Assembly (NCBI RefSeq): GCF_018069625.1 | Contig: NZ_CP072941.1 | Location: 10,296,358-10,360,357, forward strand | From: Streptomyces yatensis | GTDB taxonomy: Bacteria; Actinomycetota; Actinomycetes; Streptomycetales; Streptomycetaceae | Direction: 5' to 3' | Length of the DNA: 64,000 nucleotides | Part shown: positions 37,450-57,316 of the stretch, one piece after another | Numbering within the stretch: position 1 is the stretch's first letter | Layout: each line of letters starts with the position of its first letter | Made by a program: the position numbers and the translations under genes | Notes under the pieces: model-generated | Database searches by the model: none | What the model was told of the DNA's origin: nothing | The model's input: only the letters and a program-made list of their open reading frames with translations

Positions 37450-39785
37450 CCGCACCACCACCGGCCATCGCCGCCGAGGACGGGGCCGGACGCTGGTCCT
37501 GGCCGATCTCCCCGCCCCGCGACAACGCCGCGGTGGCAGTGCGATCTGCTGAAGCCAGGGCCGTGGCCGACCTGGGCGTGCGTAATCTGCGGCGACTGCA
37601 GTACCACGACCCGTCCGCGCAGGGCTGGCGGGTGATCGGTCGGCTGCTGGGTCCGCTCGAGGCGGTCAACGCCGCACTGGACTCCCCACTCACCCCGCAC
37701 CGTCGGCGGGCCATGCTCGACGTGGTCGCTGTGCTGCTGACGCGGTGCGCGGAGACCGGCAGGACCTTCTGGGGCTGGAGCGAGGAGGAATGGTTCCACC
37801 TGCTCGGCCGCACTCAGGCCGAGTTCCGCCAGCACGCGCCGAGCTGGGCAGGCGACGAGGTCCGCCCTTATCTCGCGGCGCACGCTTACCTGCTCGGTGG
37901 CTTCAACGAGTTCCACCGACTCGGTAGTTTCCAACGACTCACCCTGGCCTGGCGGATCTTCGGACGCGACCGCGTCAACGGCGAGATCGCACGACTTCGT
38001 ACGGTCCTGGGCGCTTGGGGCTACCGGCTCGGCCGGGACGAGGACACGCTGCTGCCGATGGTGGTCTGCCAGCTGTTCCTGCTCAACCGCAGCCCGCATC
38101 TTGAGGATCTGGACACTGCGCTGTTCGACCGGGTTCGCCGCGACGGGCTGCTGGAGGGCAGTCGTCTGAACACCCTGCACGCGATGCAGCGGGCGGTCGC
38201 CGAGCTCGGATTCTGTGATCCTCCGCGTCCCGGCACCGGCCGCCACTCGGCTCGGGCGACCGGTGGCGCGCAGATCTGGGAACAGTGGGCCGACCGCTGG
38301 CACACCACCTCGACACTGACGCCGCGTGTCCGCGGCAGCGTCCGCTCGAACCTGCTCAAGGTCGGCCGGTGGATCGCCGCCGAACAGCCCGACGCCGCCG
38401 ATCCGGCCGACTGGACGCGTCAGACCTGCGCTTCGTGGATCGCCGCGCTGGACCGGATGAAGGTCGGCGACTACGTCCAGCGCACGATCGGGCTGGGCGA
38501 CCGTCTCGGCAAGCCACTGGAAGCGCCCAGCAAGGCTGGGCAGATCACCGCGCTGCGGACGTTCTTCCGGGACTGCCAGGAATGGGAGTGGCTGCCCCGT
38601 CGCTTCGATCAACTGCGCGCGCTGGCCATCCCCCGCAGCATCACGGCCCTCCTCGGGCCCGATCCCAGAGTGATCGCCGACGAGATCTGGGCGAAGCTGT
38701 TGTGGGCGGGCCTGAACCTGGAGCTCGCGGATCTGCCGCAGACCCGATCCGGGCATTTCTACCCCTTCGAACTGGTCCGCGCCGTCACGCTGACCTGGCT
38801 GTTCTCCGGCCAACGCAGTGACGAGATCGCCCGGTTGAGGGTGGGCTGCATCCGCTGGCAGCACGACGGGGCACCGATTGTCGGCGACTCGCAGCAGGTC
38901 CTGGCCCGCGACGCCGTCTGCCTGCTCGACGTCCCGACCCATAAAACCAGCTCCTCGTTCACCAAACCGGTCGATCCGATCCTGGGCCAGGCCATCGACG
39001 CTTGGCAGAGCATCCGCCCGGATCAGCCGAAGTTCACCGACCGCCGCACCAGCGAGGTGGTCGACCCGCTGTTCGCCGTCCGGGCCCGCCGCGTCTCCAC
39101 CAGCTACATCAACAACACGATCATCCCGATGCTCTGCCGCAAGGCCGGAGTCCCGGCCGCCGACGTCCGCGGCAACATCACCAGCCACCGGGCCCGGTCC
39201 ACCATCGCCAGCCAGCTCTACAACGCCAAGGAGCCGATGACGCTGTTCGAGCTGCAAGCATGGCTCGGACACCGCTCACCGCAATCCACCCAGTACTACG
39301 CGAAGATCACGCCCAACACCCTCACGAAGGCATACACCGAGGCCGGGTACTTCGAGCGCAACGTCCGCACGGTCGAGGTCCTGCTCGATCGCGACGCCAT
39401 CACCTCCGGGGCCGCGGCCACCGGTGAACCCTGGCAGTACTACGATCTCGGTCACGGGTTGTGCTCCTACTCGTTCTTCGAACAGTGCCAGCACCGGATG
39501 GCCTGCGCTCGCTGCGACTTCTACACGCCCAAGGAATCGACGAAATCCCAACTCGTCGAAGCCAAGGCGAACTTGCAGCGCATGCTCGTGAGCATTCCGC
39601 TCACCGAAGAGGAACGCGCCGCCGTCGACGACGGCCAGAGCGCCCTCGACCGCCTTCTCCAGCGCCTCGCAGAGGTGGCCACCCCAGCCGGCCCGACCCC
39701 GAGCGAGCTCCGCGCCGAACCCGGCCGGCCCCTGCCACTGACCGTCCGATCACCACCTGACCCCATCGACCGAAAGTGCTGCTGA
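37446..39785 (+). CDS. large tyrosine recombinase 2
   Basis: The 779-aa protein from GTG 37446 has a long N-terminal region of unknown fold and a C-terminal tyrosine recombinase domain: box I Arg in TWLFSGQRSDEIARLRVG, HxxR in NITSHRARSTIASQLYN, and LGHRSPQSTQYYAKITPNTL with the nucleophile Tyr. After the catalytic domain a Cys-rich tail (CSYSFFEQCQHRMACARCDF, C-x8-C-x5-C-x2-C) may bind zinc. This matches the large second recombinase of tandem-recombinase transposons. It overlaps recombinase 1 by four bases and is followed two bases later by the phosphatase gene. Confidence 0.88.
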   Translation: MTAPPPAIAAEDGAGRWSWPISPPRDNAAVAVRSAEARAVADLGVRNLRRLQYHDPSAQGWRVIGRLLGPLEAVNAALDSPLTPHRRRAMLDVVAVLLTRCAETGRTFWGWSEEEWFHLLGRTQAEFRQHAPSWAGDEVRPYLAAHAYLLGGFNEFHRLGSFQRLTLAWRIFGRDRVNGEIARLRTVLGAWGYRLGRDEDTLLPMVVCQLFLLNRSPHLEDLDTALFDRVRRDGLLEGSRLNTLHAMQRAVAELGFCDPPRPGTGRHSARATGGAQIWEQWADRWHTTSTLTPRVRGSVRSNLLKVGRWIAAEQPDAADPADWTRQTCASWIAALDRMKVGDYVQRTIGLGDRLGKPLEAPSKAGQITALRTFFRDCQEWEWLPRRFDQLRALAIPRSITALLGPDPRVIADEIWAKLLWAGLNLELADLPQTRSGHFYPFELVRAVTLTWLFSGQRSDEIARLRVGCIRWQHDGAPIVGDSQQVLARDAVCLLDVPTHKTSSSFTKPVDPILGQAIDAWQSIRPDQPKFTDRRTSEVVDPLFAVRARRVSTSYINNTIIPMLCRKAGVPAADVRGNITSHRARSTIASQLYNAKEPMTLFELQAWLGHRSPQSTQYYAKITPNTLTKAYTEAGYFERNVRTVEVLLDRDAITSGAAATGEPWQYYDLGHGLCSYSFFEQCQHRMACARCDFYTPKESTKSQLVEAKANLQRMLVSIPLTEEERAAVDDGQSALDRLLQRLAEVATPAGPTPSELRAEPGRPLPLTVRSPPDPIDRKCC

Positions 39786-39786
39786 C

Positions 39787-40269
39787 ATGCGACGCGACCT
39801 CTTCACCATCGACTTCCCCGGCCCGGGACGACTGAGCACCATGGCCAGACCCCGTGGCAATGACTGGCTCGAAGACGAGATGGCCGCACTGAAGACCTGC
39901 GGCGTCGACGTCCTGGTCTGCGCGCTCCCCGGCCCCGAACTCGACGAACTCGGCCTCGCAGACGAACCCCGGACAGCCGTCACGGCTGGGCTGCAGTTCG
40001 TCGCCATACCCATCCCCGACCGCACCGTCCCCGACCTCACCACGATCCGGCCTACCCTGCACAGACTCGCCGAACAGCTACACGAAGGCGCACACGTAGT
40101 CGCCCACTGCCGAGCCGGCATCGGACGCTCATCCCTCCTCGCGGCCGCACTCCTCATCCTCAACAATGTCGATCCCGACACTGCCTGGAACCAGATCGAA
40201 CGAGCTCGCGGGCTCGCCGTCCCAGACACCGCCGAGCAGCGAGAGTGGACGATGGAACTGCGCAAATAG
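39787..40269 (+). CDS. dual-specificity/tyrosine protein phosphatase
   Basis: The 160-aa protein carries the CX5R signature in VVAHCRAGIGRSSLLAAALL and a candidate general-acid Asp in IPIPDRTVPDL. This fold is cysteine-dependent phosphatase. It starts one base after the recombinase 2 stop, so it belongs to the element's operon. It could be cargo or a regulator of transposition. Recombinase trios usually have a third recombinase or small helper here, so the phosphatase is unusual. Confidence 0.85.
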   Translation: MRRDLFTIDFPGPGRLSTMARPRGNDWLEDEMAALKTCGVDVLVCALPGPELDELGLADEPRTAVTAGLQFVAIPIPDRTVPDLTTIRPTLHRLAEQLHEGAHVVAHCRAGIGRSSLLAAALLILNNVDPDTAWNQIERARGLAVPDTAEQREWTMELRK

Positions 40270-40286
40270 GCATGATGTTGACAAAT

Positions 40287-40295
40287 CAGATTCCA
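40287..40295 (-). repeat. right terminal inverted repeat
   Basis: CAGATTCCA, six bases inside the right junction; reverse complement of the left repeat. Confidence 0.65.
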
Positions 40296-40301
40296 TAGAA
40301 T

Positions 40302-41290
40302 GATCCGATTGACATGACCTTCGACGACGCCCGAATTCCAGGGCAGCGTGAGTCCGGCGATGACGGCGTCGCGGTCGCGGTCGATGCCGGCGGCGAGCGT
40401 GTGGAGGCTGGGCAGGTCGTCCTGACGGACGGCATCGAGCCAGTCCGGCAGACGCTCGCCCTTGCGGCCGGTGACCATGGCCGCGAAGGCACGGACGTGC
40501 CGGGTCAGAGCGTCGAGTTCGGGGCAGTGAGCCCGGACGACCTTGAGCTGGAGATGCTCGGATTCGGTGAGGGTTTCCGGATTCCGGAGGATCCATCCGG
40601 CGACGGCTCGGGGCGACGGCGGCCGAGCAGTCACCGGACCTGGTGAAGTGCGCTTGTCGTGCAGGTAGGCGCGAACGCGCTGGTAGCTGCCCTTGTAGCC
40701 GAGGGGGACGATTCCTCCCACAGCTTCCACGCGTTTGTGCAGCCCTCGTTCCAGCGGTCGTCCAGGTAGGGCTTGTAGTCATCGAGGACCGAAGGCCGGT
40801 TCTGCCATTGACCGGTGAACAGCTCCTCCGGCGTCGCGACGTCGGCGAACTGCTTGACGGTTCGCCAGCTCATCCCGAGCTGGCGCTGGACCGAGCGTCG
40901 ACTGTGCCCTGCGTTCAGCAGGGCGTGGACGGCAGTGTGCCGGGCCCGTGTCCGGTCGGCGAAGCGGTGTCCTCGTGGCCAAGGCGAAGCCGACGGGTCC
41001 GCGGCCGGGACTGCCTCGGGTTCGGGCTGAGGTGCTGCGGGCGTCAGAACCTGCAGACATCGGCGGTGCTGAGCGACGCTCCGCTCGGCGGCCTCGCTCA
41101 GGTTGTGCCAGAGATGCCACCTGTCCGCGACCTGGACCGCTTGCGGCGCTCCGGCCGCAGCGCCTTCAGCGAAGAACGGCGCGCGGTCCCGGCAGACGAC
41201 CTCGACGCCGGGCCGCTCGGCGAGCCATGCAGCCAGGCTGGATGCCTCCCGGTCCGGGAGCAAGTCGACCGGACGGCGGGTTTCGACGTC
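40302..41290 (-). pseudogene. ISL3 transposase body, interrupted at both ends
   Basis: Read from 41290 downward: DVETRRPVDLLPDREASSLA, AWLAERPGVEVVCRDRAPFF, AVQVADRWHLWHNLSEAAER, HRRSVQRQLGMSWRTVKQFA and KLWEE. After one frameshift near 40720 it continues VPLGYKGSYQRVRAYLHDKR, ERLPDWLDAVRQDDLPSLH and LPWNSGVVEGHVNRI. The C-terminal tail lies at 36239-36310 because of the recombinase transposon. The N-terminal ~150 codons are missing: homology stops right before DVETRR at 41290, where the CRISPR island begins. Confidence 0.85.
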
Positions 41291-41396
41291 TGCTGAGTCT
41301 CATTTCAATGTCCATTCATATTTCTCGTTGTGATGTCACTGGTACGGGAGCTTAGGCAGGTAGCTGACCTGGTGTCACCGCAAGTACATCCCTTTT

Positions 41397-41468
41397 GTGA
41401 GACGACAGCGGGTGAGAAAAATGGCTGTCACGTTGTGAGAATTGCCAGGACATTTTCGTGAGAATTGC
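41397..41468 (+). repeat. direct repeats resembling transposase end-binding sites
   Basis: GTGAGA occurs at 41397, 41412, 41435 and 41458. The last three are exactly 23 bp apart, and two share GTGAGAATTGC. Tn7/Tn5053-like ends carry several ~20-bp TnsB sites in this kind of arrangement. They lie ~110-170 bp inside the ISL3 junction. Confidence 0.5.
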
Positions 41469-41590
41469 TATAGCGAGTCCCGTCTGACCTGTGGTTTCTC
41501 GGTGGTCGATGCTGTCATGCCTGCAGGATCGACGGCCGCGCCCCCGCCTACCGCGAATGGCTCCAACCGCTTGACCAGTATCAACACAGG

Positions 41591-41973
41591 CAATCCATCT
41601 TGCTTGCGCGGCGCTTACGGCGCGGAGGTTCCTTAGCTCGTGCCCATCCCTGCTTGCGCGGGACTTACGCGAGAGCACCCTCCATGACGCGCGGGTACTT
41701 CGAGCCATCCCTGCTTGCGCGGGGCTCACGTCGGCGGCCTGCTGGGCTCGAGACCTGATGCCGAGCCATCCCTGCTTGCGCGGGGCTGGCTGTCGCCTCT
41801 ACATGACCGCGACTCCACGCATCGATCCAGTCCCGCTTCCGCAGGACCTGTCGTCGCCTCTACATGACCGCGACCCCACGGCTCGATCCATCCCTGCTGA
41901 CGCGGAGCTTGTCCCGAGAAGGTGCGCGTGGACCGCGGTAAGGGCGATTCATTCCTGCTTGCGCGGGGCTTGT
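41591..41973 (-). CRISPR. type I-E-like CRISPR array, 7 repeats, 61-bp period
   Basis: Repeats of 28 bp start at 41591, 41641, 41702, 41763, 41824, 41885 and 41946. The core on the plus strand is CCATCCCTGCTTGCGCGGGG. The minus strand (AGCCCCGCGCAAGCAGGGAT) has the I-E hairpin-like form, so the array is probably read leftward, with its leader toward cas3 at 41974-42146. Spacers 2-6 are 33 bp; the first interval is only 22 bp. Repeats at 41591, 41824 and 41885 carry 3-9 changes. Spacers 4 and 5 are close relatives (see findings). Confidence 0.9.
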
Positions 41974-42146
41974 CTCTTCGTGGCCTGATGTTCTCGGGTG
42001 AGTTTAGCAGCGTTTGTGTGTCATCGGTGGTCGTGTGGCGGACGGTTGCTTCCGGCCGGGGTGGGTGACGTGGTGTGGGCTGTAAGGGGGGCTGGTGCGT
42101 GGGAGGGTTGTGGTTTCTCGGCGGACCGGTGGTGGGGGTGGCGGTG

Positions 42147-45010
42147 ATGGGGGCTGTTGAGGACGCCCGGCTGGGGGGTATCGATCTGGGGCCGTGGACG
42201 GAGTTCGATGCGGCTTCGAATACGGTGTATCCGCTGTTGTTCGGGATGCTCGACAGTGCGGTGATGGCGTTCGAGGTGTGGGAACGTGTGGTGACCGTTT
42301 CCCAGCGGGATATGCTGAGCGAGGGTATGGGGCTGCCTGCGGCGCAGGCGCGGTCGGTGGTGGCGTTCCTGGCCGGGCTTCAGGATCTGGGACGCATGGT
42401 TCCCCGATTCCAGCGCGCGCACCATGCCGCCTGGGCGCGGCTCGATGACACGCTGGTGGAGCAGGCGGGCGGCGATACCGGGTGGACACCGACCGCGCGC
42501 AGTTCGATGCATGTGGCGCTGGGGGTGCTGACCATGAGCGGCTACGCGTGCGCCGGCAACGCCAGTCCCGCGGTGCGGGCGGCCCAGGTGGTCGGTGGCT
42601 GCAGGGGATTCTTCCTCCAGGCTGATATCGAGGGTGCGGCGTCCGCGCGCCGGGTGTCTGTTGCGGCCGGGGGAGAGGCATGGGACAGGCTGCGTCACCG
42701 TTACGCGGCCGTGGTGCGGCATCTGACGGGAGCCGTACACGTTCCCGAACGGCTGTCCGTCCCCGCGGCGGTACTCGCGGCCGGTGTGGGGACGGTGGCC
42801 GGCCAGCTGGCGAGGCAGCGGTCCTACTGGCTGCCGAAGGCGCACATGCCGGCCTTCGGGGCGGCCGAACACTTCACTCTGGCAAGCGGGGAGGCGCGGG
42901 ACGTTCTGGATGCGGCATGGCTGGAGAAGCTGGAGTGGCAGGACGTGCCGTTCGCGGTGGCGCATCCGCGCGCCAGGCGCCCCAACAGGTTCCAGGAGTC
43001 GCTGATGACCCAACTGCCCTCCCTGGTCGGGAAGTCGGGCAGCGGTATCCTGGTGGCGGCGGATGCGACCGGGACGGGCAAGAGTGTCGGCGCGCTGCAG
43101 GCGTCGCGGATCTTCAACGCGGCCTGCGGGAGTAGGGGAGTGGCGTGGCTGTCGCCCAGCACCGCCACCGCGGATGCCTCCTGGGAACTGCTCGAGGACT
43201 ACGTGCGCCGGCACGATCCCTACCGGGCACCGGTCGCTCTCGCGCACAGCCACAGCTGGCTCAACGCCGCCTACAGCGACCGCCGGCTCGCCGCGGTGGA
43301 ACTCGCCCCGGTCCCGGTGGCCGCAGGGGAGAGGGTGCCGCCGACGGGGGACGCCGCTGGCGCGGGTGATGACGATCCGGTGACGGAGCCCCCCAGGCTG
43401 CTGCGGGGGCACGACGCGGCCTTGCTGGCCCCGTTCTGCGCCGCGACGGTCGATCAGGCGCAGATGGCTGTCCTGCCCGTCCACTCCAACGCGGTACGGC
43501 TGCTGGGCCTGTCCGGCAAGACGGTCGTCGTCGACGAGGCGCACGCCCTGTCTGCCTTCAGCCACCTGCAACTGCTGCGCCTGCTGGGCTGGTTCGGGTC
43601 CCTGCGCACCCCCGTGGTGCTGCTGTCGGCGACTCTGCCCGCCTCCACTGCCGACGCATTCGTGCGCGCCTACCTGACAGGTGCCGGCCACAGGGCCTCC
43701 GCTCTGCCGCAGGGTGCCTTCAGCCCGTCGTATCCGGGCTGGCTGTTCGCCGATGCCGCGACCGCGACCGCCACCGTCATGGACGAGACCGCACGCCTTC
43801 GTCACGCCGCAGGCCAGCACCGTCAGGCCCGTATCCGCGTCCACGACGTGCGGCGCACACGGCTCGGCCCGCAGCCGCGCACCGTCGGGAGCACAGAGCG
43901 CCTCGCGGTGATCGGTGACGTGCTCACGCCCGTCATCAGCCACGGCGGATGCGCCGCGGTGACCTGCGCGACTGTCCCGGACGCCCAGGACACCTACCGG
44001 CACCTGAAGCACACCTGGCCCGGCGACCCGGCCGACCTCGTCCTGCTGCACGCCCGCTTCCCCGGCCACCACCGTGAACGTCTCCTGCGCACCCTGAGCC
44101 GCCGGCTGGGACCCACCGGCGAGCGCCCGGAGCGGCTCGTCGTTGTCACCACGAGCCTGCTCGACACGAGCCTGGACATCGACGTCGACCTGATGGTCAG
44201 CGACCTGGCCTCCGTCGCCCGCCTGCTGCAGCGTCTGGGACGCCTCGCACGCTTCGCCCTACGCTGGCAGAACGATGATGCCTCCCGCCGCCCGGTGTGG
44301 TGGGGCGACGGCCACATCCCGGACTTCCACGTCCTCGAACCCGTCTCGGCCGCCGGCGCCACTTCGATCCCGGCCGGCTGGCGCACCCTGGAATCCCCCT
44401 TCGTCCTGCGCGCCACTGCCGACCTGCTGCGCACCCGCTCACTGATCAGCCTGCCCGGCGATGTGCAGGACCTGGTCGAGCAGATCCACGGCCCGCACTC
44501 GCCCTTCGCCGGGGCCACCGAAGCCCTCAGATACGACGCGGCCCGCCTGCGGACAAAGGACACCATCGAACGGCACCTCAGCGCCCAGCATCTCCTCCCG
44601 CCGCCGGGCCGTGTCTCCTCCCTGGCCGACCTCCACCGCCAGCGCCTGACCACCGCGCAGGCCGCCACCCGGCTGGGCACGCTGCCCGTGCGGCTGCTGC
44701 CCTGCTACCGCACCGCCTCCGGCGGCCTCGCCCTCGACCGGGCCGGCCGCCACCCCCTTCCCACCGGGCCGCGTCTGGAGACCGCCGGCATCCGCCGCGT
44801 CCTGCAGCACACCCTGCCCGTCCCCGCCGCCTGGGTCGCCCGCCGCGGCCCCCAGCACCGTCCCCCGAGGCCTGGAGCACCCACCCCCTGCTCGCGGACC
44901 TGGTCCTGCTGCCCGCACCGGCCCACCACACCGGACACACCGAACAGTACGGCCGCTACCTGCTGCGCATGGACGACGAACTCGGCCTTGTCCACACCAC
45001 AGCCCGCTGA
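42147..45010 (+). CDS. cas3: Cas3 helicase with inactivated HD nuclease domain
   Basis: The protein has about 954 aa in the I-E Cas3 order: HD region, SF2 helicase, C-terminal domain. The helicase motifs are intact: Walker A DATGTGKSVGAL (~residue 310), DEAH in TVVVDEAHALSAFSHL (~462), LLSATLPAST (motif III) and LLQRLGRLARFA (motif VI). The HD metal ligands are gone: YPLLFGMLDSA has Gly33 where family members have His (YPLVFHMLD), AGLQDLGRMVPRF has Gln79 in the HD motif, and GGHHG reads GGCRG (151-154). It should unwind or translocate on DNA but not cut it. A frameshift near 44865 separates the last ~45 codons (WSTHPLLADLVLLPAPAHHT..LGLVHTTAR). ATG 42147 is the likely start. Confidence 0.88.
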
Positions 45011-45306
45011 CCGGCAGGAGAACACCTCCCCGCCGCCGGGTATTCGTATGACTTATCTCGCCGTTTGTACACGCGGGGTCACTCTGTGATTATCTGAATG
45101 TGTGCCCGGTCGAAGATTCCACCGAGGCAAACGCCCCTGTGCCACAAGCACTCTGACGGGCCGCATGCACCATGTCCCGCCCGTTCCCGGCCGAGTGACG
45201 CCCAGGCCGCGGCCCCGCCGCCCTCCCCGCCGTCCCGGGACAGGGAAGCCCCGCACTCTCATCCCCCTCGCCCTTCTTCTCCTGCTGCCTCTGTGGAGCA
45301 CCACCG
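45011..45306. other. gap between cas3 and cas8e
   Basis: About 300 bases with no supported gene. It probably contains the promoter of the Cascade operon. Confidence 0.4.
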
Positions 45307-47454
45307 TTGACACCGCCCGACCGCTTCAGCGCGGCCGACGACCCCTGGATCGACGTCCGTGACCAGCACGGCTACCACCGCACCGGCCTGCGCGGCCTGA
45401 TCCTTGACGCCCACACCATCGAAGACCTCGCCGTGGCCGCCGCCCCGGCCGCATCGGCCATCCTGCGCATCGCGACCGTCCTGGCCGCCCGCATCACCGG
45501 CCTCGACGACCCCGAACTGAACGCCGACACCTGGAACCGGCACCGCAGTGAACTCCTCGGCCGTACCGACGGGTTCGACACCGACGCCGTCAACACCTAC
45601 TTCGCGAAGTACTCCTTCGACGTGTTCGACCCGTTACGGCCCTGGATGCAGGACCCCCGGCTGCGCGAGCAGTGCGCGATACCCTCCGGCATCAACACGC
45701 TCGTCTTCGGACGCCCCGCAGGCAACAACCTGGCCTGGCTCAGCCCCCACCACGACCAAGCAGCGATGCCCCTGCCCACCGGCGAGGCACTCCAGCACCT
45801 CCTCATCCACCACTACTACGGAGCATCCGGCGGCTGCACCTCCCGCACAGCCGGCACACTCACATGCCCCCGCGCCGCCGCCGGCCCCCTGCGCGGCACC
45901 GTCTCCTTCCACCCCCTGGGCCGCACCCTGTACGAAACGCTCCTGGCAGGCATCCCGAAATTCACCGCCGACGAACAGAGCGAACCAGACCACTGCCCAT
46001 GGGAAGAGCCCCAACTCCCCGACCCGCAAGCCCCCTTACCGCCCGCCACCTGGCCGGGACGGCGCCTGACAGGCATGAACCGGCACTCCGTGCTCCTCGT
46101 GCCCGGCGACGACGCGAGCACCGTCACCAACGCCTACCTGACCTGGTCCACCCAGCAGCCCCGGCTCGCGGTGACCGACCCCTACCTCGTCGTCCGCACC
46201 GGCACCGGCCGCCCGCCCCAAGCCCGTCCCCGCCGCGCGGACGCCGACCGCGCCTGGTGGCGCGAGCTGGACTCCCTGGTCCTGGCTCCCGACGAACAGC
46301 ATGCGACACGCCGCCCGGAAGTCTTCGACACCCTCAACGACCTCCCACCCCCAGTACGCAAGAGCCTGCGCGTACGGGTCCACGGCTTCGACCAGGACAC
46401 CAAAACCATCCAGCGCCGCTGGTACACGGCCATCACCCCGCCCCTGCTCGCCTGGAGTCAGGAACACGACCCCGCACGCGCCAACCGCATCTCCGAATGC
46501 TGCACCGCAGCCGAGAGCACCGCCTCCCGCCTGACGTTCCTGACCAACCAGGCGTGGAAGGACACCTGCCACGCAGCCCCCTCCTCAAAAGATCCCTCGT
46601 GGACCGCCACAGCCCGCAGCCTGTACTGGCAGCAAGCCGAAGCAGCGTTCTGGCACCTCCTGGACACCGACACCCCCGCACGGATCACGTTCGCCGACAC
46701 CGCAGCCCGCGCCCTGCGCACCGCGACTGCCAGCGCCCGCTTCCGCCACCGCGCCGCCGCCCGCGCCATCGCCACAGCAGTCGACGCCCTCTACACCCGC
46801 CCCCCGCCGCCCGCGCACGCCAGGACCCTGATGCCCACTGCGATTGAGTACCGCCGCCACTACACCGGCTTCACCGCAAAGGTCGAGAAAGCCTGCACCG
46901 ACCCCAAAGCGCGGCGGACCCTGCGCCAGGGCCGCGGCCGCCCGGTCGACGACTGCAACGGCATGCACCGCTTCCTGTCCGTGCTCACCCACGGCTACGG
47001 GCAACGCCGCGTCCACTACACCGTCGCCTCCCTGATCGCCCACGTCGACCCCCTCGATGCCGTACGGGCAGCACACGCCACCAGCACCGAACAACCCACC
47101 ACCCCCGCAGCCACGAACCCCGACCCTGCCCCCGACCTCGACCCCTACAGTCCGGCCACCTGGCGGAAACGGCCCAACCTCGGCGCGACCCTCGCCCACG
47201 CGGTGCGCACCGCCGACTTCAACGAGACCCGTACCGACGAACTCCTCGCCGTCCTGGTCCGTCTCAGCGAGAACCAGCTGCACCGCCGCCTGCCCTCCCT
47301 GACCGGCCGTCTCATCGACGCAGACCTCACCCCCGACTGGCCGGTTCTTCTCGACGACCTCGCCCAGCGCGACCACGACCGGGGCCGGGTCGCCACCCGC
47401 TGGCAGGACGCCTTCTACCGCACCCTGTACCTGACCTCCAAGGAAACCCCGTGA
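45307..47454 (+). CDS. cas8e: Cas8e (Cse1) fused to Cas11 (Cse2)
   Basis: The 715-aa frame starts with TTG 45307. Residues ~1-505 are Cse1, the large Cascade subunit that finds the PAM and recruits Cas3: ADDPWIDVRDQHGYHRTGLR, IPSGINTLVFGRPAGNNLAW and TSRTAGTLTCPRAAAG with family-typical order. From ~residue 511 it is Cse2, the small subunit lining the target strand: IEYRRHYTGFTAKVEKACTD, DCNGMHRFLSVLTHGYGQRR, HYTVASLIAHV, GATLAHAVRTADFNETRTDE and RWQDAFYRTLYL. In standard systems these are separate genes (about 500 and 180 aa). A Pro/Thr/Asp-rich insert sits inside the Cse2 part. The stop overlaps the next GTG. Confidence 0.88.
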   Translation: MTPPDRFSAADDPWIDVRDQHGYHRTGLRGLILDAHTIEDLAVAAAPAASAILRIATVLAARITGLDDPELNADTWNRHRSELLGRTDGFDTDAVNTYFAKYSFDVFDPLRPWMQDPRLREQCAIPSGINTLVFGRPAGNNLAWLSPHHDQAAMPLPTGEALQHLLIHHYYGASGGCTSRTAGTLTCPRAAAGPLRGTVSFHPLGRTLYETLLAGIPKFTADEQSEPDHCPWEEPQLPDPQAPLPPATWPGRRLTGMNRHSVLLVPGDDASTVTNAYLTWSTQQPRLAVTDPYLVVRTGTGRPPQARPRRADADRAWWRELDSLVLAPDEQHATRRPEVFDTLNDLPPPVRKSLRVRVHGFDQDTKTIQRRWYTAITPPLLAWSQEHDPARANRISECCTAAESTASRLTFLTNQAWKDTCHAAPSSKDPSWTATARSLYWQQAEAAFWHLLDTDTPARITFADTAARALRTATASARFRHRAAARAIATAVDALYTRPPPPAHARTLMPTAIEYRRHYTGFTAKVEKACTDPKARRTLRQGRGRPVDDCNGMHRFLSVLTHGYGQRRVHYTVASLIAHVDPLDAVRAAHATSTEQPTTPAATNPDPAPDLDPYSPATWRKRPNLGATLAHAVRTADFNETRTDELLAVLVRLSENQLHRRLPSLTGRLIDADLTPDWPVLLDDLAQRDHDRGRVATRWQDAFYRTLYLTSKETP

Positions 47455-48605
47455 CTGCTGCCCGCTTCCTCGACATCCACGCCCTCCACCCGAGCACGGC
47501 CGCCAATCTGAACAGCGACGAGAGCGGGGAACCCAAAACCCTCGAACTGGGCGGCGCCATCCGCACGATGATCTCCTCCCAGGCATGGAAACGCCCGATC
47601 CGACTGGCCGTCGAAGAAGAACTCGACGAGCACGCCGCCCGCACCCGCATGGTCCCTCCGACCGTCACCGACGCGCTGCGCGCCGAGGGCTGGACCGAGG
47701 ACCTGGCATCGTTCGCCGCGGCCCAGATCGCCGCCAGCGCGAAGACCGGGGGACTCAAGACCAATCCCCAAGAAGACCACCGCACCCAGGCCATGTTCTT
47801 CCTGCCCGCCGACACCGCCCGCCACCTGACACAACTGTGCCGCACCCACCGCACCACCCTCGAAGAAGGCCTGGCCAAACAGACCGCCACCAAGAAGCCG
47901 GCCCCCGCACTCCTGCCCACCGACGAGATCACCGCCCAGCTCACCCGCCGCACCGCCAGCATCAGCCTCTTCGGGCGCATGCTCACCGAAATCCACGACG
48001 GCCACATCCAAGCCGCCGTACAGATGGCCCCGGCCTTCACCGTCCACCGCAGCGAGCCCCAGCCGGACTTCTTCACCGCCGTCGATGACTGGCCCCGCCC
48101 TGGCGAAGCAGGCAGCGCCCACCTCAACACCGCCTACCGCTCCACCGGACACTTCTACCGCTTCGCGACCGTCAACACCACCACACTCCTGGCCAACCTG
48201 AACGGCGACACCACCACCGCCCGCACCCTCATCGACCTGTTCACCCAGGCATTCATCATGACCATGCCCCGCGGCGGACAGACCTCCGCAGCCGCGCACA
48301 CCGTGCCCGACCTCGTCCACTACGTCGTACGTGACCGCCGACCCGTCTCCTACGGCGCCGCCTTCGAACAACCCGTCCGCTCCCACGGCCAGGGCTACGT
48401 CCTGCCCGCCCGCCAGGCCCTCACCACGTACGCCACCACCATCGACCGCCTCATCGGCACCCGCCACCGCATCACCCACGGCCACGCCACCACCGCCGGC
48501 ACCCCCATCGGAGAACTGGGCACCCACCACACCGGTTTCGATGACCTCGCCGCCACCTGCGCCCGCACGGCCCTGCCCGACACCCCCAGCCAGGCCGCCG
48601 CATGA
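47451..48605 (+). CDS. cas7e: Cas7e (Cse4) backbone subunit
   Basis: The 384-aa protein forms the Cascade backbone along the crRNA. It begins MTAARFLDIHALHPSTAANL, then NSDESGEPKTLELGGAIRTM and ISSQAWKRPIRLAVEEE. Later it has GRMLTEIHDGHIQAAVQMAP, HLNTAYRSTGHFYRFATVNT and AFIMTMPRGGQTSAAAHTVP, all standard for Cas7e. GTG 47451 overlaps the cas8e stop. The frame is intact, unlike cas5e next to it. Confidence 0.93.
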   Translation: MTAARFLDIHALHPSTAANLNSDESGEPKTLELGGAIRTMISSQAWKRPIRLAVEEELDEHAARTRMVPPTVTDALRAEGWTEDLASFAAAQIAASAKTGGLKTNPQEDHRTQAMFFLPADTARHLTQLCRTHRTTLEEGLAKQTATKKPAPALLPTDEITAQLTRRTASISLFGRMLTEIHDGHIQAAVQMAPAFTVHRSEPQPDFFTAVDDWPRPGEAGSAHLNTAYRSTGHFYRFATVNTTTLLANLNGDTTTARTLIDLFTQAFIMTMPRGGQTSAAAHTVPDLVHYVVRDRRPVSYGAAFEQPVRSHGQGYVLPARQALTTYATTIDRLIGTRHRITHGHATTAGTPIGELGTHHTGFDDLAATCARTALPDTPSQAAA

Positions 48606-49399
48606 GCCGCGGACTGGTCCTGCGCGCAGCCGGCCTCCTGCAGTCCTACGGCGAGGCAGGCACCTTTCACCACCGCGACACCACAACCTTCCCCACCCGG
48701 TCCGCACTGATCGGCATGTTCGCCGCCGCCCAGGGACGCACCGCCGAACACGCCCTGGACCCTTACCCCGAACTGCCGGGCACCCCCAGCCACCGCGACC
48801 TTGCCCTCACCATCCGCGTCGACTGCCCCGGCACCCCTACCGCGACTGGCACACCACCGGCGGCGGACGCCCCCACCGCCAAGGCCTGCACACCAGCGAC
48901 GGGAAATACCGCACCCAAAACAGATCCACGCACATCTCCCAACGGGACTATCTGACCGGCGCCGTCTTCACCATCGCCGTCCAAGGCCCCGCCCGCTCCT
49001 GGCGCACATCGCCACCACACTCACCACCCCGCGCTTCTCCCCCTACCTCGGCCGACGCGTCTGCCTGCCCGACGAACCCTCCTCATCCACACCGACATCC
49101 CCGACCCCGAAACCGCCCTGCGCGACCGCGTCCCCCTCAGCCTCGCCCACCCACCCCGCCCCGGCCAGACCCACGTGCCCATCGACTTCTGGGCCGAACA
49201 CCCCCCACACCCCGGCACCCCACCCGACCGCGAAACCCCGAGCGAACCAGCCGACTTCACCCACACCCGCCGCCACCACCTGCTCCGCCCCCTGTGGAGA
49301 ACCACCGAACCACTCCCCACCACCCTCTACGCCGGACCCCGGCCCATCGACACCCTCACCGACTACATCCTCAAGGACACCCCATGCCGGCAACCCTGA
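48602..49399 (+). pseudogene. cas5e: Cas5e (CasD), three frameshifts as written
   Basis: ATG 48602 starts a normal Cas5e: GLVLRAAGLLQSYGEAGTFH, then RDTTTFPTRSALIGMFAAAQ and LPGTPSHRDLALTIRVD. At ~48835 the text passes to the second frame (YRDWHTTGGGRPHRQGLHTS, RTQNRSTHISQRDYLTGAVF, TIAVQGPA). At ~49003 it passes to the third (LLAHIATTLTTPRFSPYLGR, RVCLPDEP). At ~49078 it returns (PDPETALRDRVPLSLAHPPR, HVPIDFWAEHPPH) and ends at 49399. Each step is one missing base. Joined, they give a full-length ~265-aa Cas5e, which caps the crRNA 5' handle. Either the gene is dead or the sequence has errors. Confidence 0.85.
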
Positions 49400-50022
49400 C
49401 CCGCATCATCCTCAACCGCCACCACCGCAGAGCCTGCAACGACCTCGCCTACCGACCCGGCCTCCACAAAACCATGATGCGCCTCCTGCCCCACCCCGAC
49501 GGCCCCCACCCCCGCAAAGCCGGCGGCCTCCTTTTCCGCCTCGACCCCGGCCTCGACCCCGTCCTCCTCGTCCAAACCGCCGACACCCCACACCTCGCCG
49601 GCCTCCCCGACGGCTACGGAGACATCACCACCCGCGACCTCACCCCCATCCTGACCGGCCTCACTCCCCACCTCCCCGTGCGCTACCGCATCACCGCCGC
49701 CCCCGTCGTCAGCCGCAGCGCCGACGCCGTACCCCACCCCGTCACCGGACGCCTCCGCGGCAAACTCACCCCCCTGACCGGACCGGACGCCATCGCCTGG
49801 TGGCAACGCCGCGCCCCGGCCGCCGGCCTGCACCTCACCAGCCTCCCCGCAGCCACACCCTGCCCCTTCCCCTCTCCCCGCCCAGGACCCTACGAGCGCC
49901 TGACCCAGTTCGACGGCACGGCCACCATCAGCGAACCGGCCCTCCTCGACACCGCGATCCGCGAAGGCATCGGCCGCGGCAAGGCCTACGGAGCCGGCCT
50001 GCTCACCCTCACCCCCGGCTGA
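49384..50022 (+). CDS. cas6e: Cas6e (CasE) CRISPR endoribonuclease
   Basis: The 212-aa protein cuts the repeat hairpin to make crRNAs. It begins MPATLTRIILNRHHRRACND and contains the catalytic His in PGLHKTMMRLLPHPDG, ferredoxin-like cores, and the Gly-rich C-terminal loop REGIGRGKAYGAGLLTLTP. It overlaps the cas5e end by 16 bases. The frame and the key residues are intact, so the arrays here could be processed. Confidence 0.92.
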   Translation: MPATLTRIILNRHHRRACNDLAYRPGLHKTMMRLLPHPDGPHPRKAGGLLFRLDPGLDPVLLVQTADTPHLAGLPDGYGDITTRDLTPILTGLTPHLPVRYRITAAPVVSRSADAVPHPVTGRLRGKLTPLTGPDAIAWWQRRAPAAGLHLTSLPAATPCPFPSPRPGPYERLTQFDGTATISEPALLDTAIREGIGRGKAYGAGLLTLTPG

Positions 50023-50063
50023 ACCATCCCGCCCTCCACGAAGCACGAAAGGCACCCCCCGCC

Positions 50064-51647
50064 ATGCAACCGCCCCTGCCCGCTCCCGACGACACCCGGC
50101 TGCGAGCCCTGGCAGTCAGCCGCCTGCTACACCACAGCGAACTCGGCACCCTCGCCCCCGGGCACACCCGCGCCGTATGCGACGCCTTCGGCGTCACCTC
50201 CCGTACCGTCCGCCGCTGGATGAAAAACGCCGCGGCCAACAACGGCACCTACACCCCACAGGGCCGCCCCGCCTACCAGCTCACCGACCACGCCATCGAA
50301 GTCATCGCACGATTGCGGGGCAACGTCACCGCCGCCTACAAGGAACTCAAAGAAGAACCCTTCAAGGACGAGAAACTCCCTTCCCCGGCCACGTTCCACC
50401 GGGCAGCCCAACGCCACTGGAACAAAGGACAGCGCGCCGGCCTGAGCGGAGGAGAAAGCGCCCGCCGCCGCTACGACATCCACGGAGAACGCGAACACCA
50501 CCACCGCAACTATGCCTGGGAAACCGACCACGTCGAAGCCAGCGTCCCCGTCATCCTCGACGGCCACGTCCGCAAACCATGGATCACCTGGTTCATCGAC
50601 TGCGCCACCAAATGTATCTGCGGCGTCGCCATCACCCCCCAGACACCCAGCAGGGAAAGCATCCTCGTCGCCCTGCGCGACGCCATCCTCACCGAAGCGC
50701 CGCACAACCCCTATGGCGGGATCCCCGACCGCATCCGCGTCGACGGCGGCCGCGACTTCCTCTCCCGCACCGTCGGCCAGGCACTCGGCTCGCTCGGCAC
50801 TGAAACACATCGTGCTGCCGCCCCGCCGCCCCGACCTGAAAGCCACCGTCGAAGCAGCCAACGGCGCCATCAAAAAAACCCTCTTCGCCGACTTCCCCGG
50901 CTACACCGAAGCCCCCACCCTGTCAGGCGGCAAACCCGTCGACCCGACCAGCCCCTCCTGCACTTCGAAGGCTTCGTCGCCCTCGTCCTCGACTGGATCC
51001 GCAAACGCAACACCGTCCACACCATGGACAAACTCGACGGAAAAACCCCCGAGCAGGCATGGACGGACGACCTCACCCCCATCTTCGATGTCCCTGCCGA
51101 AGACCTGCACACCCTCACCCTTGAGCGCGCCGGTAAACCCCTGACCATCAACAACAGCGGCGTCCGCTGGCGCAAACGCGACTACATCGCCGAATGGATG
51201 CACGGCCACGCCGGCGAAAAGGTCCACCTGCGCCACCTCCTGCACCACGACCACCGCGTCGAGCTCTACGAGCCCGGCACCCTCCGCCACCTCGGCCCCG
51301 CCTTCCTCACCGATCAGGTGACCCCCGCCCAGCGCAGAGCACTCGACCGAGCCCGCCGCAGCGAGGCCGACCGACTGCGCAACGCACTCAAAAAGGCCGA
51401 GAGGAACCGCAACGCACGCTACGAAGCCGTCACCGAAGCACGCCCACCCCGACGGCTGGACGCCCTCACCCAGGACGAAGCGACCGAACAACTACGCGAA
51501 CTCAACGCCACCAGCCAGGCATTCGAACCGCTCCCGGACTTCATTCCGCTTCCCGAACCCTCCGACGACCTGACCATGCCCCTGGACCACCGCCCCAACC
51601 AGCCCGAGGACGAACACCCCGACGACCAGACCGGACTCCGAACATGA
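50064..51647 (+). CDS. DDE transposase, TnsB/Mu-like
   Basis: The 527-aa frame has an N-terminal HTH region (DAFGVTSRTVRRWMKNAAAN, AYQLTDHAIEVIARLRGNVT), an RNase H-fold integrase core and a Mu-type C-terminal barrel (GVRWRKRDYIAEWMHGHAGE) followed by a charged coiled-coil tail, typical for binding the AAA+ partner. Asp155 is in WETDHVEASV and Asp227 in RIRVDGGRDF. Glu (codon at 50851, VEAANGAIKKTLF) is 36 codons further on. Between ~50800 and ~50955 the homologous text lies in another frame (KHIVLPPRRPDLKATVEAAN), so two compensating indels remove the catalytic Glu from the written product. AAAGG lies upstream of ATG 50064. It follows cas6e by 41 bases. Confidence 0.85.
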   Translation: MQPPLPAPDDTRLRALAVSRLLHHSELGTLAPGHTRAVCDAFGVTSRTVRRWMKNAAANNGTYTPQGRPAYQLTDHAIEVIARLRGNVTAAYKELKEEPFKDEKLPSPATFHRAAQRHWNKGQRAGLSGGESARRRYDIHGEREHHHRNYAWETDHVEASVPVILDGHVRKPWITWFIDCATKCICGVAITPQTPSRESILVALRDAILTEAPHNPYGGIPDRIRVDGGRDFLSRTVGQALGSLGTETHRAAAPPPRPESHRRSSQRRHQKNPLRRLPRLHRSPHPVRRQTRRPDQPLLHFEGFVALVLDWIRKRNTVHTMDKLDGKTPEQAWTDDLTPIFDVPAEDLHTLTLERAGKPLTINNSGVRWRKRDYIAEWMHGHAGEKVHLRHLLHHDHRVELYEPGTLRHLGPAFLTDQVTPAQRRALDRARRSEADRLRNALKKAERNRNARYEAVTEARPPRRLDALTQDEATEQLRELNATSQAFEPLPDFIPLPEPSDDLTMPLDHRPNQPEDEHPDDQTGLRT

Positions 51648-52434
51648 CCCAGCCACCCGCCCCCGCCTGCCGGCTTCCCGACCCCATCCACGACCACTAC
51701 CAGCGCCTCGCCGGAGCCCACACGGTAGGCACCAAGGCAGCCCGCGAAACGGAACAACTCATCAAGGAGGCCATCGAGCACCACTCCATCATCTGCATCC
51801 ACGGACAAGTCGGCCTCGGCAAGACCTTCGCCGTCCACCGCGCCCTGCGTAAATTCGCCCCCACAACACCGTCCGCCTCCGCTTCGACGCCAGCGCCACC
51901 AAGACCGAGGTCTACCACGCCTTCTGGCGCGCCCTCGCCCTGCCGGGCAAGCCCCTCGACAACCTCGCCGCCTGCAAAGGCGACATCCGACAGGCCCTCG
52001 CCAGCCAGCCCCACGTCCTGCTCATCGACGAAGTCCAGAACATCAACACCTCGCTCATGGAGAGCGCCCGGATCCTGTGGGACGAAGAGACAAACCCCCT
52101 CACCGTCATCCTCGTCGGCAGCGGCAACACCCGCCAACGAGTCCTGCGCCACGCACCCCTGCACTCCCGCCTCTACCAGGCCCAGCAGTTCAGACCACTG
52201 AGCCTTGCCGAGGTCTTCAACAACATCCCTCCCTACCACGCCGTGTGGAACGACGCCGACCAGGACCTCCTGGCCTTCACCGACGACGCAGGCGCACACG
52301 GCTACTTCCGTAACTGGGCCAAGATCACCTTCCATGCCCAGGAAGCCCTGAAGAAGAACCCCGAACTCACGATGAGCAAAGAACTCATCCGCTGGATCCT
52401 CGGTCGGCTCGACACCACCACCCGTCACTCCTGA
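51644..52434 (+). pseudogene. AAA+ ATPase, TnsC/TniB-like (one frameshift)
   Basis: ATG 51644 overlaps the transposase stop. The first frame gives DPIHDHYQRLAGAHTVGTKA and SIICIHGQVGLGKTFAVHRA (Walker A GQVGLGKT). Near 51862 one base is missing, and the next frame continues VRLRFDASATKTEVYHAFWR, HVLLIDEVQNINTSLMESAR (Walker B), VILVGSGN (sensor) and a C-terminus ending at 52434. Rebuilt, it is about 263 aa. Such ATPases load on target DNA and activate TnsB/MuA. In CRISPR-associated transposons they link the guide complex to the transposase. Confidence 0.82.
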
Positions 52435-52469
52435 ACCCGCCGGAGCGGGCCCGCAGACAGGGGAGGTGA

Positions 52470-53268
52470 GCAGTCCTTGTCGGAGCGAACTTCAGTCGCT
52501 GCAACCACCAGGCTCCCACCGACGACCGCGCTGGCACAGGCCGGTGGATCGCCATCGACGAGTCCGGTTACCACGGCGATCAACTCCACGGCGGCGACCG
52601 TTACGTGATCATAGCCTCGGTGGCCATCGACGACGCGGAAGCAGCCGGATCGTGGACACGCTGCGACGAGAGGCGGGAATCCAGAAGTCCGCGACAGAGG
52701 TGAAGCTCCAGAAGATGTTCACCGGCGGGGAAGCCGGTCAGCGCCGTCGGCTCTTGGGCGAACTGCTGGCACCCGGCGCGCCCTTGCACGACCGTGCTTC
52801 GGTGTACGTGATCGACAAGCACTACTTTGTCGCGGCCAAGCTCGTAGACCTCGTGCTGGAGGATACGCCTACGCTCGCCGCCGCAAGGCCCCCCAGGCGA
52901 AGAAGGCGGCAGAGGTCCTGGACATGCTGCGCAAGACCCGCCCAGAAGCCGATGAGTTCGCCCGTGAGCGTCCGGCCGAGGCCACACCGACCGGAGAGCA
53001 CGGCCTCCTGGACGACACTACGGACCTCCTCGTCACCGCGGTGCCCACGGTCATTCTCCACGCGTCGATACGCTACGGCGGCAAGCCCCAGGTCCTCGCG
53101 GACGACCAGAGGCTGCTGACTGACGACAAACTCGACGTCCTGGAACGCGGGGCCACGGCCGTGGGCTTGGTCCACGGCCTCATCAACGGGGCCGTCACCG
53201 AAACTGAAGCTCGGACCGCTCACTGCGGAGGACGGCCCGCGGTGAATACCGGGGCCGACGGGTGCTAG
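52470..53268 (+). pseudogene. DUF3800-like protein, frameshifted
   Basis: The segment RWIAIDESGYHGDQLHGGDR and YVIIASVAIDDAEA has the D-E-S start of DUF3800 (RNase H-like fold, common in defence and mobile loci). Further frames give DTLRREAGIQKSATEVKLQK, RASVYVIDKHYFVAAKLVDL, LDMLRKTRPEADEFARERPA and HGLLDDTTDLLVTAVPTVIL. At least three frame changes occur (near 52555, 52640 and 52875). It lies just after the transposition genes and could be cargo. Function unknown. Confidence 0.6.
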
Positions 53269-53534
53269 GGAGCGCCGTCGACTCTGCTTGTTCGTCTTCG
53301 GTCACCGCCGCCAGCGGGTGACCGGCCACGCGCCGCTATGCGCCGCCACGGGCCTGCCCATCTTGTCAGGGACGCGGGTGCCCAGACCGGCTTGCTGTCC
53401 GGATGTGTCGGACAGGACCCTAAGCCTGCCCAGCGAGCACTCTTCTGGCGCTCCCTTGAACCCTGCGGCCAGGATCTCGAACGCCTCCCCTTGACCACCG
53501 GCGCTCCGAGTTCGTGCAGGTCAGCCACCAGAAC

Positions 53535-53942
53535 CTAGCGCCACATCAGGTGGGGGCTTGTACGGTCGTCGTCGGTGAGCGTGCGCTCGCCTATGTGACG
53601 GGTGGCGCCCTCGGTGAAATAGCTGCGGTGGGCTGCCCACAGGCCGGCGTAGAAGTGCCGGAAGATGAAGTCCATGAACCGTCCCACGTGCATAGGTGCG
53701 GCACAGGCGATTCGGCACTGTATGGAGTTGAGGGTCAGATGTGAGGCAGGGTGTCCCGGAGCGGCGGATGCCGGGTCGTAGTCGAAGCGTATGGCCGAGT
53801 GCAGCACCATACTGGTGGGGGTGTCTGCGGCGTAGATGTTCACGACGTCCAGTAGTGGTTCGACACGGACGAGGTCTGGGTCCATGCGGTAGGGCGTGGG
53901 TATGTAGGCGAGCCGGTGGCCGGCGGCAGGCCCGTCACCCAC
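53535..53942 (-). pseudogene. DUF2290-like protein, N-terminally truncated
   Basis: The 135 codons encode LVRVEPLLDVVNIYAADTPT, HSAIRFDYDPASAAPGHPAS, HLTLNSIQCRIACAAPMHVG and RFMDFIFRHFYAGLW. This resembles the C-terminal part of DUF2290 proteins, which sit in restriction or defence islands. The start region is replaced at 53940 by an IS fragment on the other strand. Role unknown. Confidence 0.5.
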
Positions 53943-54128
53943 AACCGATCTCTACCGCGACCGCAACACGGTCGAGCGGGCCATCAACAGGATGAAGGAC
54001 TGGCGAGGCATCGCGACCCGCTACGACAAGACGCCCGAGAGCTACCTCGCCGGACTTCATCTCCGCGCAGCGACCATCTGGATCAGCAACATCCTAAAAG
54101 CCCAATGATCACAACTGGAGACAGTCCC
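53941..54128 (+). mobile_element. IS5-type transposase fragment with terminal repeat
   Basis: The plus frame TDLYRDRNTVERAINRMKDW, RGIATRYDKTPESYLAGLHL, RAATIWISNILKAQ-stop (54108) is the C-terminus of IS5-group DDE transposases, with the catalytic-Glu segment VERAINR. Just after, ACTGGAGACAGTCCC looks like the right inverted repeat. The rest of the IS is absent. Confidence 0.75.
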
Positions 54129-55139: not shown

Positions 55140-55146
55140 CCGGGCC

Positions 55147-57131: not shown

Positions 57132-57316
57132 TCAGCTACCGCGCGCCGGCACCACCCGGCCCGGAGCCGCACGAGCCGATCCACCCGAAACCCCGACCGC
57201 GCCGAACCGGCGCCGCGGGCGCCGACTCTCCGCCAGCCGGACCCCTCGCCACGCACCCACATGCACTCGCCGATGCTGCCCCCTCGCTCAACGGGCTCGG
57301 ACGGGAGAGCGCATGA
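57128..57316 (+). CDS. small proline-rich hypothetical protein
   Basis: ATG 57128 overlaps the ATPase stop and the 62-aa frame ends overlapping the next ATG (57313). It is Pro/Arg/His-rich (SYRAPAPPGPEPHEPIHPKP) with no domain. Position, not sequence, is the only support. Confidence 0.35.
   Translation: MISYRAPAPPGPEPHEPIHPKPRPRRTGAAGADSPPAGPLATHPHALADAAPSLNGLGRESA

What the first reader, a model, noticed from the sequence alone, without database searches (positions are those of the whole stretch)
41291..52434. Candidate CRISPR-associated transposon built on type I-E Cascade
Seen: a CRISPR array, cas3, cas8e-cas11, cas7e, cas5e, cas6e, then a DDE transposase with Mu-type C-terminal barrel and an AAA+ ATPase, all on one strand. 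Only 41 bases separate cas6e from the transposase, and ATGA couples the two transposition genes. cas1 and cas2 are absent. The left border cuts into an ISL3 gene. Known: guided transposons of types I-F, I-B, I-D and V-K pair an effector complex with TnsB/TnsC and lose interference. Inference: this is the same principle with a I-E complex that keeps a helicase-only Cas3. I saw no tniQ or tnsA, so target coupling would have to use another route, possibly Cas3 or the ATPase directly, and joining could be replicative. I cannot check whether relatives have been published.
Basis: partly seen in the sequence, partly recalled or inferred. Interest (0 to 1): 0.95.

Follow-up and report, generated by a model that had tools for sequence, protein, structure and literature searches.

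The report
CRISPR-guided transposon at chromosome tip
The tip of this Streptomyces chromosome is likely a jumping element; it carries a CRISPR complex whose Cas3 has lost its DNA-cutting residues, and several of its guide sequences match genes near the ends of other linear replicons, where they would likely steer its landing; the general kind is already published, and this nuclease-dead branch looks like a new variant.

Summary
Window 41291-52434 carries a degenerate CRISPR array, cas3, cas8e, cas11, cas7e, cas5e, cas6e, tnsB and tnsC; searches found no Cas1, TniQ or TnsA in this genome. The window's frameshifts look like assembly errors: the other copy of this terminal repeat encodes intact genes. 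The gene row is conserved in at least 12 of 392 sampled genomes of the genus and on a linear plasmid. The kind is known: Nature Microbiology 2025 names it I-E5, a TniQ-less CAST in telomeric transposons, and says its Cas3 nuclease is active. Here it is not: this element and two relatives have lost five or six of six catalytic HD residues but keep the helicase motifs. The element's inner end maps to base 41291: the same end joins two unrelated flanks in this genome, one a rival transposon's tnsC-like gene. Spacers match DNA near chromosome ends, mostly with an AAG PAM: 50 hits from 30 of 127 spacers in 400 kb of terminal DNA, against 1 hit in 400 kb of core DNA. Targets include tnsB and tnsC of rival telomeric transposons and terminal helicase genes. 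Guided insertion itself is not shown. Verdict: a nuclease-dead variant of a known kind.

The parts
39750..41290 (-). ISL3-family transposase pieces, cut at 41290/41291: flank of the right-arm insertion, not part of the element
   Evidence: Pfam DDE_Tnp_ISL3 in both ORFs, E 0.0015 and 9.4e-7; the repeat shared with the left arm starts at 41291
41291..41490 (+). inner end of the element, starting TGCTGAGTCTCAT, with spaced TGAGAA-type repeats (presumed TnsB sites)
   Evidence: joined to two unrelated flanks in this genome; contig G028:C792 starts at the homologous base, 22 of 24 identical; exact only twice in the genome
41594..41974 (-). degenerate CRISPR array of seven repeat units; crRNA strand inferred to be minus
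   Evidence: the repeat finder; unit search; AAG PAM on that strand
41669..41700 (-). spacer s2: matches a gene of Streptomyces linear plasmids, AAG PAM
41791..41883 (-). spacers s4 (41791-41822) and s5 (41852-41883), 28 of 32 alike, matching helicase-associated-domain genes, many close to replicon ends
41913..41944 (-). spacer s6: matches tnsB of telomeric transposons without cas genes, AAG PAM
42147..45010 (+). cas3: helicase motifs kept, HD nuclease residues lost (954 aa in the other copy; frame broken near its end in the window)
45307..46831 (+). cas8e (508 aa in the other copy)
46831..47454 (+). cas11 (207 aa in the other copy; merged with cas8e in the window by frame errors)
47451..48605 (+). 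cas7e
48602..49399 (+). cas5e (broken in the window, intact 266 aa in the other copy)
49384..50022 (+). cas6e
   Evidence: annotated relative; below cut-off
50064..51647 (+). tnsB, Mu/Tn7-type DDE transposase (broken in the window, intact 527 aa in the other copy); DDE residues present
51644..52434 (+). tnsC, AAA ATPase (broken in the window, intact 263 aa in the other copy)
41291..64000 (.). terminal inverted repeat of the chromosome shared with G000:C1:69391-92174; its inner edge is the element end
   Evidence: blastn 99.5%, 0 mismatches, 114 gap bases

Best explanation
The locus is a type I-E Cascade gene row with tnsB and tnsC, and a Cas3 that has lost its nuclease residues, starting at the inner edge of a chromosome-terminal repeat; it is likely a telomeric CRISPR-associated transposon (published variant I-E5) whose guides would steer insertion of this chromosome end into rival telomere-borne elements. 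Shown by sequence: a conserved gene row; intact DDE residues and helicase motifs; a dead HD domain; one end sequence joined to two unrelated flanks, one of them a rival transposon's tnsC-like gene; guides matching rival tnsB/tnsC and terminal helicase genes, mostly with AAG PAMs. Inferred: Cascade binds a protospacer in another telomere-borne element, the Cas3 helicase (in place of TniQ) helps to recruit TnsC, TnsB joins the single inner end near there, and the distal part of the target is replaced by this element's own telomere. Losing the HD nuclease would keep the target from being shredded.
For: Row cas3 to tnsC conserved in at least 12 of 392 genomes and on plasmid NZ_CP134205. Cas-linked TnsB form one side of one branch, 100/100; DDE columns invariant in 33 of 33. 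HD residues lost in own, L067 and L068, intact in 9 other linked loci; the three form one clade, 100/99. dN/dS below 1 in all Cas3 domains and pairs computed. End mapped by two flanks and by a relative's contig start. The left insertion interrupts a tnsC-like gene 84-89% identical over 185 residues to that of Cas-less telomeric transposons. Spacer enrichment in terminal DNA with AAG. No Cas1, TniQ or TnsA found.
Against: No guide match in the retained flanks of either insertion; by homology the s6 protospacer would lie about 0.9 kb beyond the left junction on the lost side, far more than the spacing I recall for other CASTs. HD-intact relatives carry guides of the same kind, so the guides may serve interference or silencing. 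s2's targets are not near replicon ends in two of its three best records. Not every linked locus is near a contig end: G118 is mid-contig and G253 some 334 kb from the end; in G091 and G068 the terminal repeat runs past the array. The own left arm holds the helicase target with 6 mismatches, next to ACG. Whether the contig ends are true telomeres was not tested.
Confidence: 0.55

Rival explanations
1. A telomeric transposon that carries Cascade as a weapon, not as a guide: insertion is unguided, and the complex cuts (HD-intact lineages) or silences (HD-dead lineages) rival telomeric transposons and linear plasmids.
For: Guides with AAG PAM fall in rival tnsB and tnsC; 9 of 12 linked Cas3 keep the HD residues; no guide match in the retained flanks of the two insertions.
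Against: The HD-dead clade keeps the helicase motifs and its Cas3 stays constrained, which silencing alone would not need; tnsB follows cas6e directly in all linked loci examined.
Confidence: 0.32
2. TnsB and TnsC serve as a substitute adaptation module for a I-E immune system (the idea of Faure et al. 2019 as retold in PMC12231136).
For: No cas1 in the genome; the arrays have irregular spacing.
Against: A mapped transposon-like end with two unrelated flanks; s4 and s5 look like a diverged duplicate, not two captures; dead HD in this branch.
Confidence: 0.05
3. A decaying I-E locus that happens to lie beside an unrelated transposase pair.
For: Degenerate repeats, dead HD, frameshifts in the window.
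Against: The other copy is intact; the row is conserved in at least 12 genomes; dN/dS is below 1 in all Cas3 domains tested.
Confidence: 0.03

Closest known systems
I-E5 CAST in telomeric transposons (PMC12669027, citing Hsieh et al. 2025, Science eadp1973, not held)
   Same: I-E Cascade with Cas3, TnsB and TnsC but no TniQ/TnsD, on elements at the ends of linear replicons
   Different: The published description gives Cas3 an active HD nuclease; here and in L067 and L068 the HD residues are lost. I could not compare with the published reference loci.
Streptomycetaceae I-E loci with tnsB and tnsC (Faure et al. 2019, as retold in PMC12231136)
   Same: Array, cas3-cas8e-cse2-cas7-cas5-cas6, tnsB, tnsC, no cas1/cas2
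   Different: There read as an alternative adaptation module without transposon ends; here an end is mapped
CASTs of types I-F3, I-B2, I-D (named in PMC12669027) and V-K (recalled)
   Same: CRISPR effector plus TnsB/TnsC; interference lost in most
   Different: They use TniQ/TnsD and, as I recall, two transposon ends; here neither TniQ, TnsA nor a second copy of the end was found, and Cas3 is kept as a helicase
Canonical Streptomyces I-E loci (L096, L097)
   Same: Same six effector genes, Cas8e 43-44% identical
   Different: No tnsB/tnsC beside them; HD residues intact

Membership tests
I-E5 telomeric CAST | type I-E effector genes cas3, cas8e, cas11, cas7e, cas5e, cas6e | tested here: met
   Cas6e below cut-off but annotated as cas6e in the relative L066
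I-E5 telomeric CAST | tnsB and tnsC in the same gene row, conserved | tested here: met
I-E5 telomeric CAST | no TniQ/TnsD | tested here: met
   None in this genome; the same search rang in 12 of 30 genomes. The first search's control rang nowhere.
I-E5 telomeric CAST | telomeric element with one specific inner end and the telomere as other boundary (recalled from Hsieh et al.) | tested here: inconclusive
   Inner end mapped; the outer boundary was not tested, and the right contig end stops 69 kb short of the left arm's length
I-E5 telomeric CAST | active Cas3 HD nuclease (reported in PMC12669027; taken here as a reported trait, not a defining one) | tested here: not met
   Own lost 5 of 6, L067 and L068 6 of 6 HD residues; 9 other linked loci intact. 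Hence 'variant', not plain member.
I-E5 telomeric CAST | guide-dependent insertion | not testable with these tools
   Needs an assay; the two junctions show no nearby protospacer on the retained side
TniQ-dependent CASTs (I-F3, I-B2, I-D, V-K) | TniQ | tested here: not met
Canonical type I-E immunity | Cas3 with an HD nuclease | tested here: not met
Canonical type I-E immunity | Cas1-Cas2 adaptation | tested here: not met
   No Cas1 in this genome, control rang in 9 of 14; Cas2 was not searched

The most novel reading that the evidence does not exclude
RNA-guided telomere capture: a chromosome end that is itself a transposon uses a nuclease-dead I-E complex to find rival telomere-borne transposons and terminal helicase genes, lands in them with its single end and replaces their telomere; the retained Cas3 helicase stands in for TniQ as the bridge to TnsC.
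Probability: 0.35. Interest if true: 0.87.

Novelty: new variant of a known kind. Interest (0 to 1): 0.62.

Why it matters
How a CAST without TniQ couples target search to transposition is, as far as I know, an open question. A branch that has lost the Cas3 nuclease residues but kept the helicase makes one answer testable: the helicase, or Cascade itself, hands the target to TnsC. The guide content points to a contest among chromosome ends in Streptomyces, where one telomere-borne element aims at the transposition genes of others; that would help to explain how terminal arms and linear plasmids exchange ends.

Tried and rejected
Rejected: a chance pair of unrelated elements (the row is conserved); a cas8e-cas11 fusion (frame errors in the window copy); anti-phage guides for s2, s5 and s6 (no phage record matches below E 0.3; s1, s3 and s4 were not searched against phages). 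Led nowhere: guide matches in the retained flanks; the element end in 99 other genomes or in plasmids (one search missed L068's end at its threshold); ends of HD-intact relatives, where IS elements and long repeats intervene; spacer s3, no convincing target; the first TniQ search, whose control rang nowhere, was repeated with genomes that ring. A single-end insertion leaves no target-site duplication to read.

Literature: nine searches; passages found by term in PMC12669027, PMC13228271, PMC12231136 and PMC10293859; Hsieh et al. 2025 is not held, so I cannot say that the HD-dead branch or the guide targets are unpublished.
Full report
What is there. The window is the last 64 kb of a 10,360,357-base single-contig chromosome. 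The genus is Streptomyces: G301, called 'same genus', has a contig with the same length and the same tnsB coordinates as plasmid NZ_CP030074 of S. cadmiisoli. Pfam and NCBIfam name Cas3 (HD plus helicase parts), Cse1, Cse2, Cas7e, Cas5e and a transposase with an integrase core and a Mu-type C-terminal domain. Cas6e scores under its cut-off, but a gene in the same place is annotated cas6e in a relative. TnsC is an AAA ATPase with a TniB match just under the cut-off (20.6 against 22.4 bits).

The window copy has errors. Bases 41291-64000 recur reversed at 69391-92174 of the same contig with no mismatches but 114 gap bases. A second alignment gives 105 difference events, most of them single bases missing from the window copy; 11 lie before 52,700 and 94 after it. 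In the left-arm copy cas8e and cas11 are separate, and cas5e, tnsB (527 aa) and tnsC (263 aa) are intact. I read the window's frameshifts as assembly errors, not decay. The left arm runs 69 kb beyond the point where the right contig end stops. Whether either contig end is a true telomere was not tested.

The association is real. TnsB matched 105 of 392 genomes of the genus at E up to 1e-20. Of the 30 loci fetched from that search, nine relatives (L037-L044 and L046) plus the own copy have cas5e or cas6e in front of tnsB and tnsC; larger stretches show the whole row from cas3 to tnsC. Plasmid NZ_CP134205 has it annotated as Cas3, casA, Cse2, cas7e, cas5e, cas6e, a Mu transposase and an ATPase. 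With Cas8e as query, all 12 genomes below E 1e-110 carry tnsB: beside Cas8e in 11, while in G097 the row is split between two contigs. The next best genome (G267, L096) and another (G179, L097) have I-E loci without tnsB. The 30 genome-contig loci found with the window's TnsB show no cas match, and 21 of the 30 also show tnsC. A tree of 33 TnsB (13 linked, 20 chosen from the unlinked) puts the linked ones on one side of one branch, 100/100; it warns that two long branches, L093 and L095, meet. The DDE residues are present in 33 of 33. TnsC Walker A was found in 12 of 12 linked loci examined, and a simple Walker B pattern in 7 of 12.

Position. Cas-less relatives often lie near both ends of a linear chromosome: in the six genomes G049, G093, G129, G151, G199 and G232, whose contig lengths I saw, one lies within 58 kb of each end. 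Among the linked loci, G091 and G068 have one on each arm, roughly 100 and 160 kb from the ends, and G301 has one 44 kb from the end of a 970-kb contig; but G253's is about 334 kb from the end, G118's is mid-contig and the plasmid's is 166 kb from its end. In G091 and G068 the terminal repeat runs past the array as far as I fetched it.

Cas3 has lost its nuclease residues. Aligned with a solved Cas3 (6c66/4qqw, by recall Thermobifida fusca) and with relatives, the residues at H37, H83, D84, H149, H150 and D215 read G, Q, D, C, R, G in the own protein and R, R, E, M, G, G in L067 and L068. Nine other linked loci and the two outgroups have all six. The residue numbers are recalled; the letters come from the calls. 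Walker A, Walker B and the SAT motif are present in all 12 linked loci; motif VI is out of view in L072 and reads HRLGR for QRLGR in L095. The three HD-dead loci form one clade, 100/99. dN/dS is below 1 in every domain and pair computed, the highest being 0.706 for the first helicase domain of L067/L068; their HD domain is constrained too (0.155), so it probably keeps a structural role.

The inner end. The two repeat copies share sequence from exactly base 41291 (TGCTGAGTCTCAT...) but have unrelated flanks: an ISL3 gene on the right arm, a tnsC-like AAA gene on the left arm. That gene is 84-89% identical over 185 residues to the upstream tnsC-like gene of the Cas-less loci L065, L061, L064, L055 and L053. 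In G028 the contig starts at the homologous base, 22 of the first 24 identical. The end carries spaced TGAGAA-type repeats, presumed TnsB sites, partly shared with L068. It occurs exactly twice in the genome, plus two places with 3 mismatches; the reversed control gave none. So no clear second end was found, but a diverged one could have been missed.

Guides. Protospacers are flanked by AAG if the array is read on the minus strand. In one search I scored 127 spacers from nine arrays (not independent: L066 and L070 share many) at up to 7 mismatches of 32. Core DNA, 400 kb from ten genomes: 1 hit, not AAG. Left ends, 400 kb from ten genomes, five of them also in the core set: 50 hits from 30 spacers, 31 AAG. 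Loci around TnsB relatives, 51 loci and 560 kb with some overlap among them: 238 hits from 32 spacers, 135 AAG. Reversed spacers: 0, 1 and 1 hits. Six of the ten end genomes were picked because they carry a TnsB relative there, and four because one search listed none; of those four only G005 gave hits (11). An earlier blastn count gave 26 of 171 units with E up to 1e-3 in 52 loci, best hits in tnsB for 3, tnsC for 5 and other genes for 18; reversed and shuffled controls gave 0 or 1. Of ten other target or possible target genes scanned, six were helicase-associated-domain genes; one more has a sub-threshold TniQ match (E 0.0024).

Own guides. s6 hits rival tnsB with mismatches mostly at positions 1, 6, 9, 15, 18, 21 and 24 from an AAG PAM. 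In plasmids, 17 of the 19 records with at least 80% coverage are Streptomyces, and all 17 have the site 4-40 kb from an end; 15 of 17 lie in the outer tenth on either side, 3.4 expected (25 of 82 records were listed). s5, and less well s4, hits helicase-associated-domain genes: 18 of 19 listed Streptomyces records within 39 kb of an end, 13 of 19 in the outer tenth on either side, 3.8 expected (25 of 197 records were listed, 19 counted). At the one s5 plasmid site read, the flank is CAG, not AAG. s2 hits a linear-plasmid gene with 1 and 3 mismatches and AAG; its three best records have it 33 kb from an end, mid-plasmid, and mid-plasmid in a 30-kb plasmid, so it is not end-specific. One of these records is the plasmid that carries its own I-E5 row. 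s3 has no convincing target, and s1 was not searched in plasmids. The own left arm has the helicase too, with 6 mismatches and an ACG flank.

How it likely works. The pieces fit a telomeric transposon that uses Cascade to pick other telomere-borne elements. The left insertion lies in an element of the type that s6 matches, but the protospacer would be about 0.9 kb away on the lost, PAM-distal side (905 bases in L065 and L061, 876 in L053; worked out by hand), and the retained flanks hold no guide match above shuffled controls. Guided insertion is therefore a hypothesis. With no TniQ found in the genome, Cas3 or Cascade would have to touch TnsC directly if the idea is right.

Known or new. PMC12669027 (passages) describes I-E5: a CAST without TniQ-TnsD, associated with telomeric transposons, with an active HD nuclease, citing Hsieh et al. 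2025, which is not held. PMC12231136 (passages) retells Faure et al. 2019. So the kind is known. The HD-dead branch departs from the published description. That guides aim at rival telomeres may or may not be in Hsieh et al.; the listings and the passages showed me no report of it.

Noticed in passing
L065, L061, L053, L055, L058 and others: Cas-less telomeric relatives often carry a second, upstream pair: a short TnsB-like N-terminal piece and a second tnsC-like gene. The own left-arm insertion lies in that second tnsC-like gene.
   Followed up: partly
L071 about 2600-4550: Beside the array of G253's I-E5 row lie an AAA (TniB-like by eye) gene and a TniQ match; spacers of the HD-dead arrays L067 and L068 match inside this stretch at 3963-3968.
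   Followed up: no
window 41791-41883: Spacers s4 and s5 differ at 4 of 32 bases and match the same helicase motif (reads RLYMTATPR), as if one guide was duplicated and drifted.
   Followed up: partly
protospacers of s4-s6: Mismatches to targets fall mostly on every third base from the PAM, the wobble positions of the target codons, some of which are the sixth positions that Cascade is recalled to tolerate.
   Followed up: no
window 52700-64000: The end of the contig is dense in small differences from its other copy (94 of 105 events), so gene calls there are unsafe.
   Followed up: partly
L067 and L077 arrays: Two arrays from distant linked lineages share nearly the same spacer against tnsC (31 of 32 aligned bases).
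   Followed up: no
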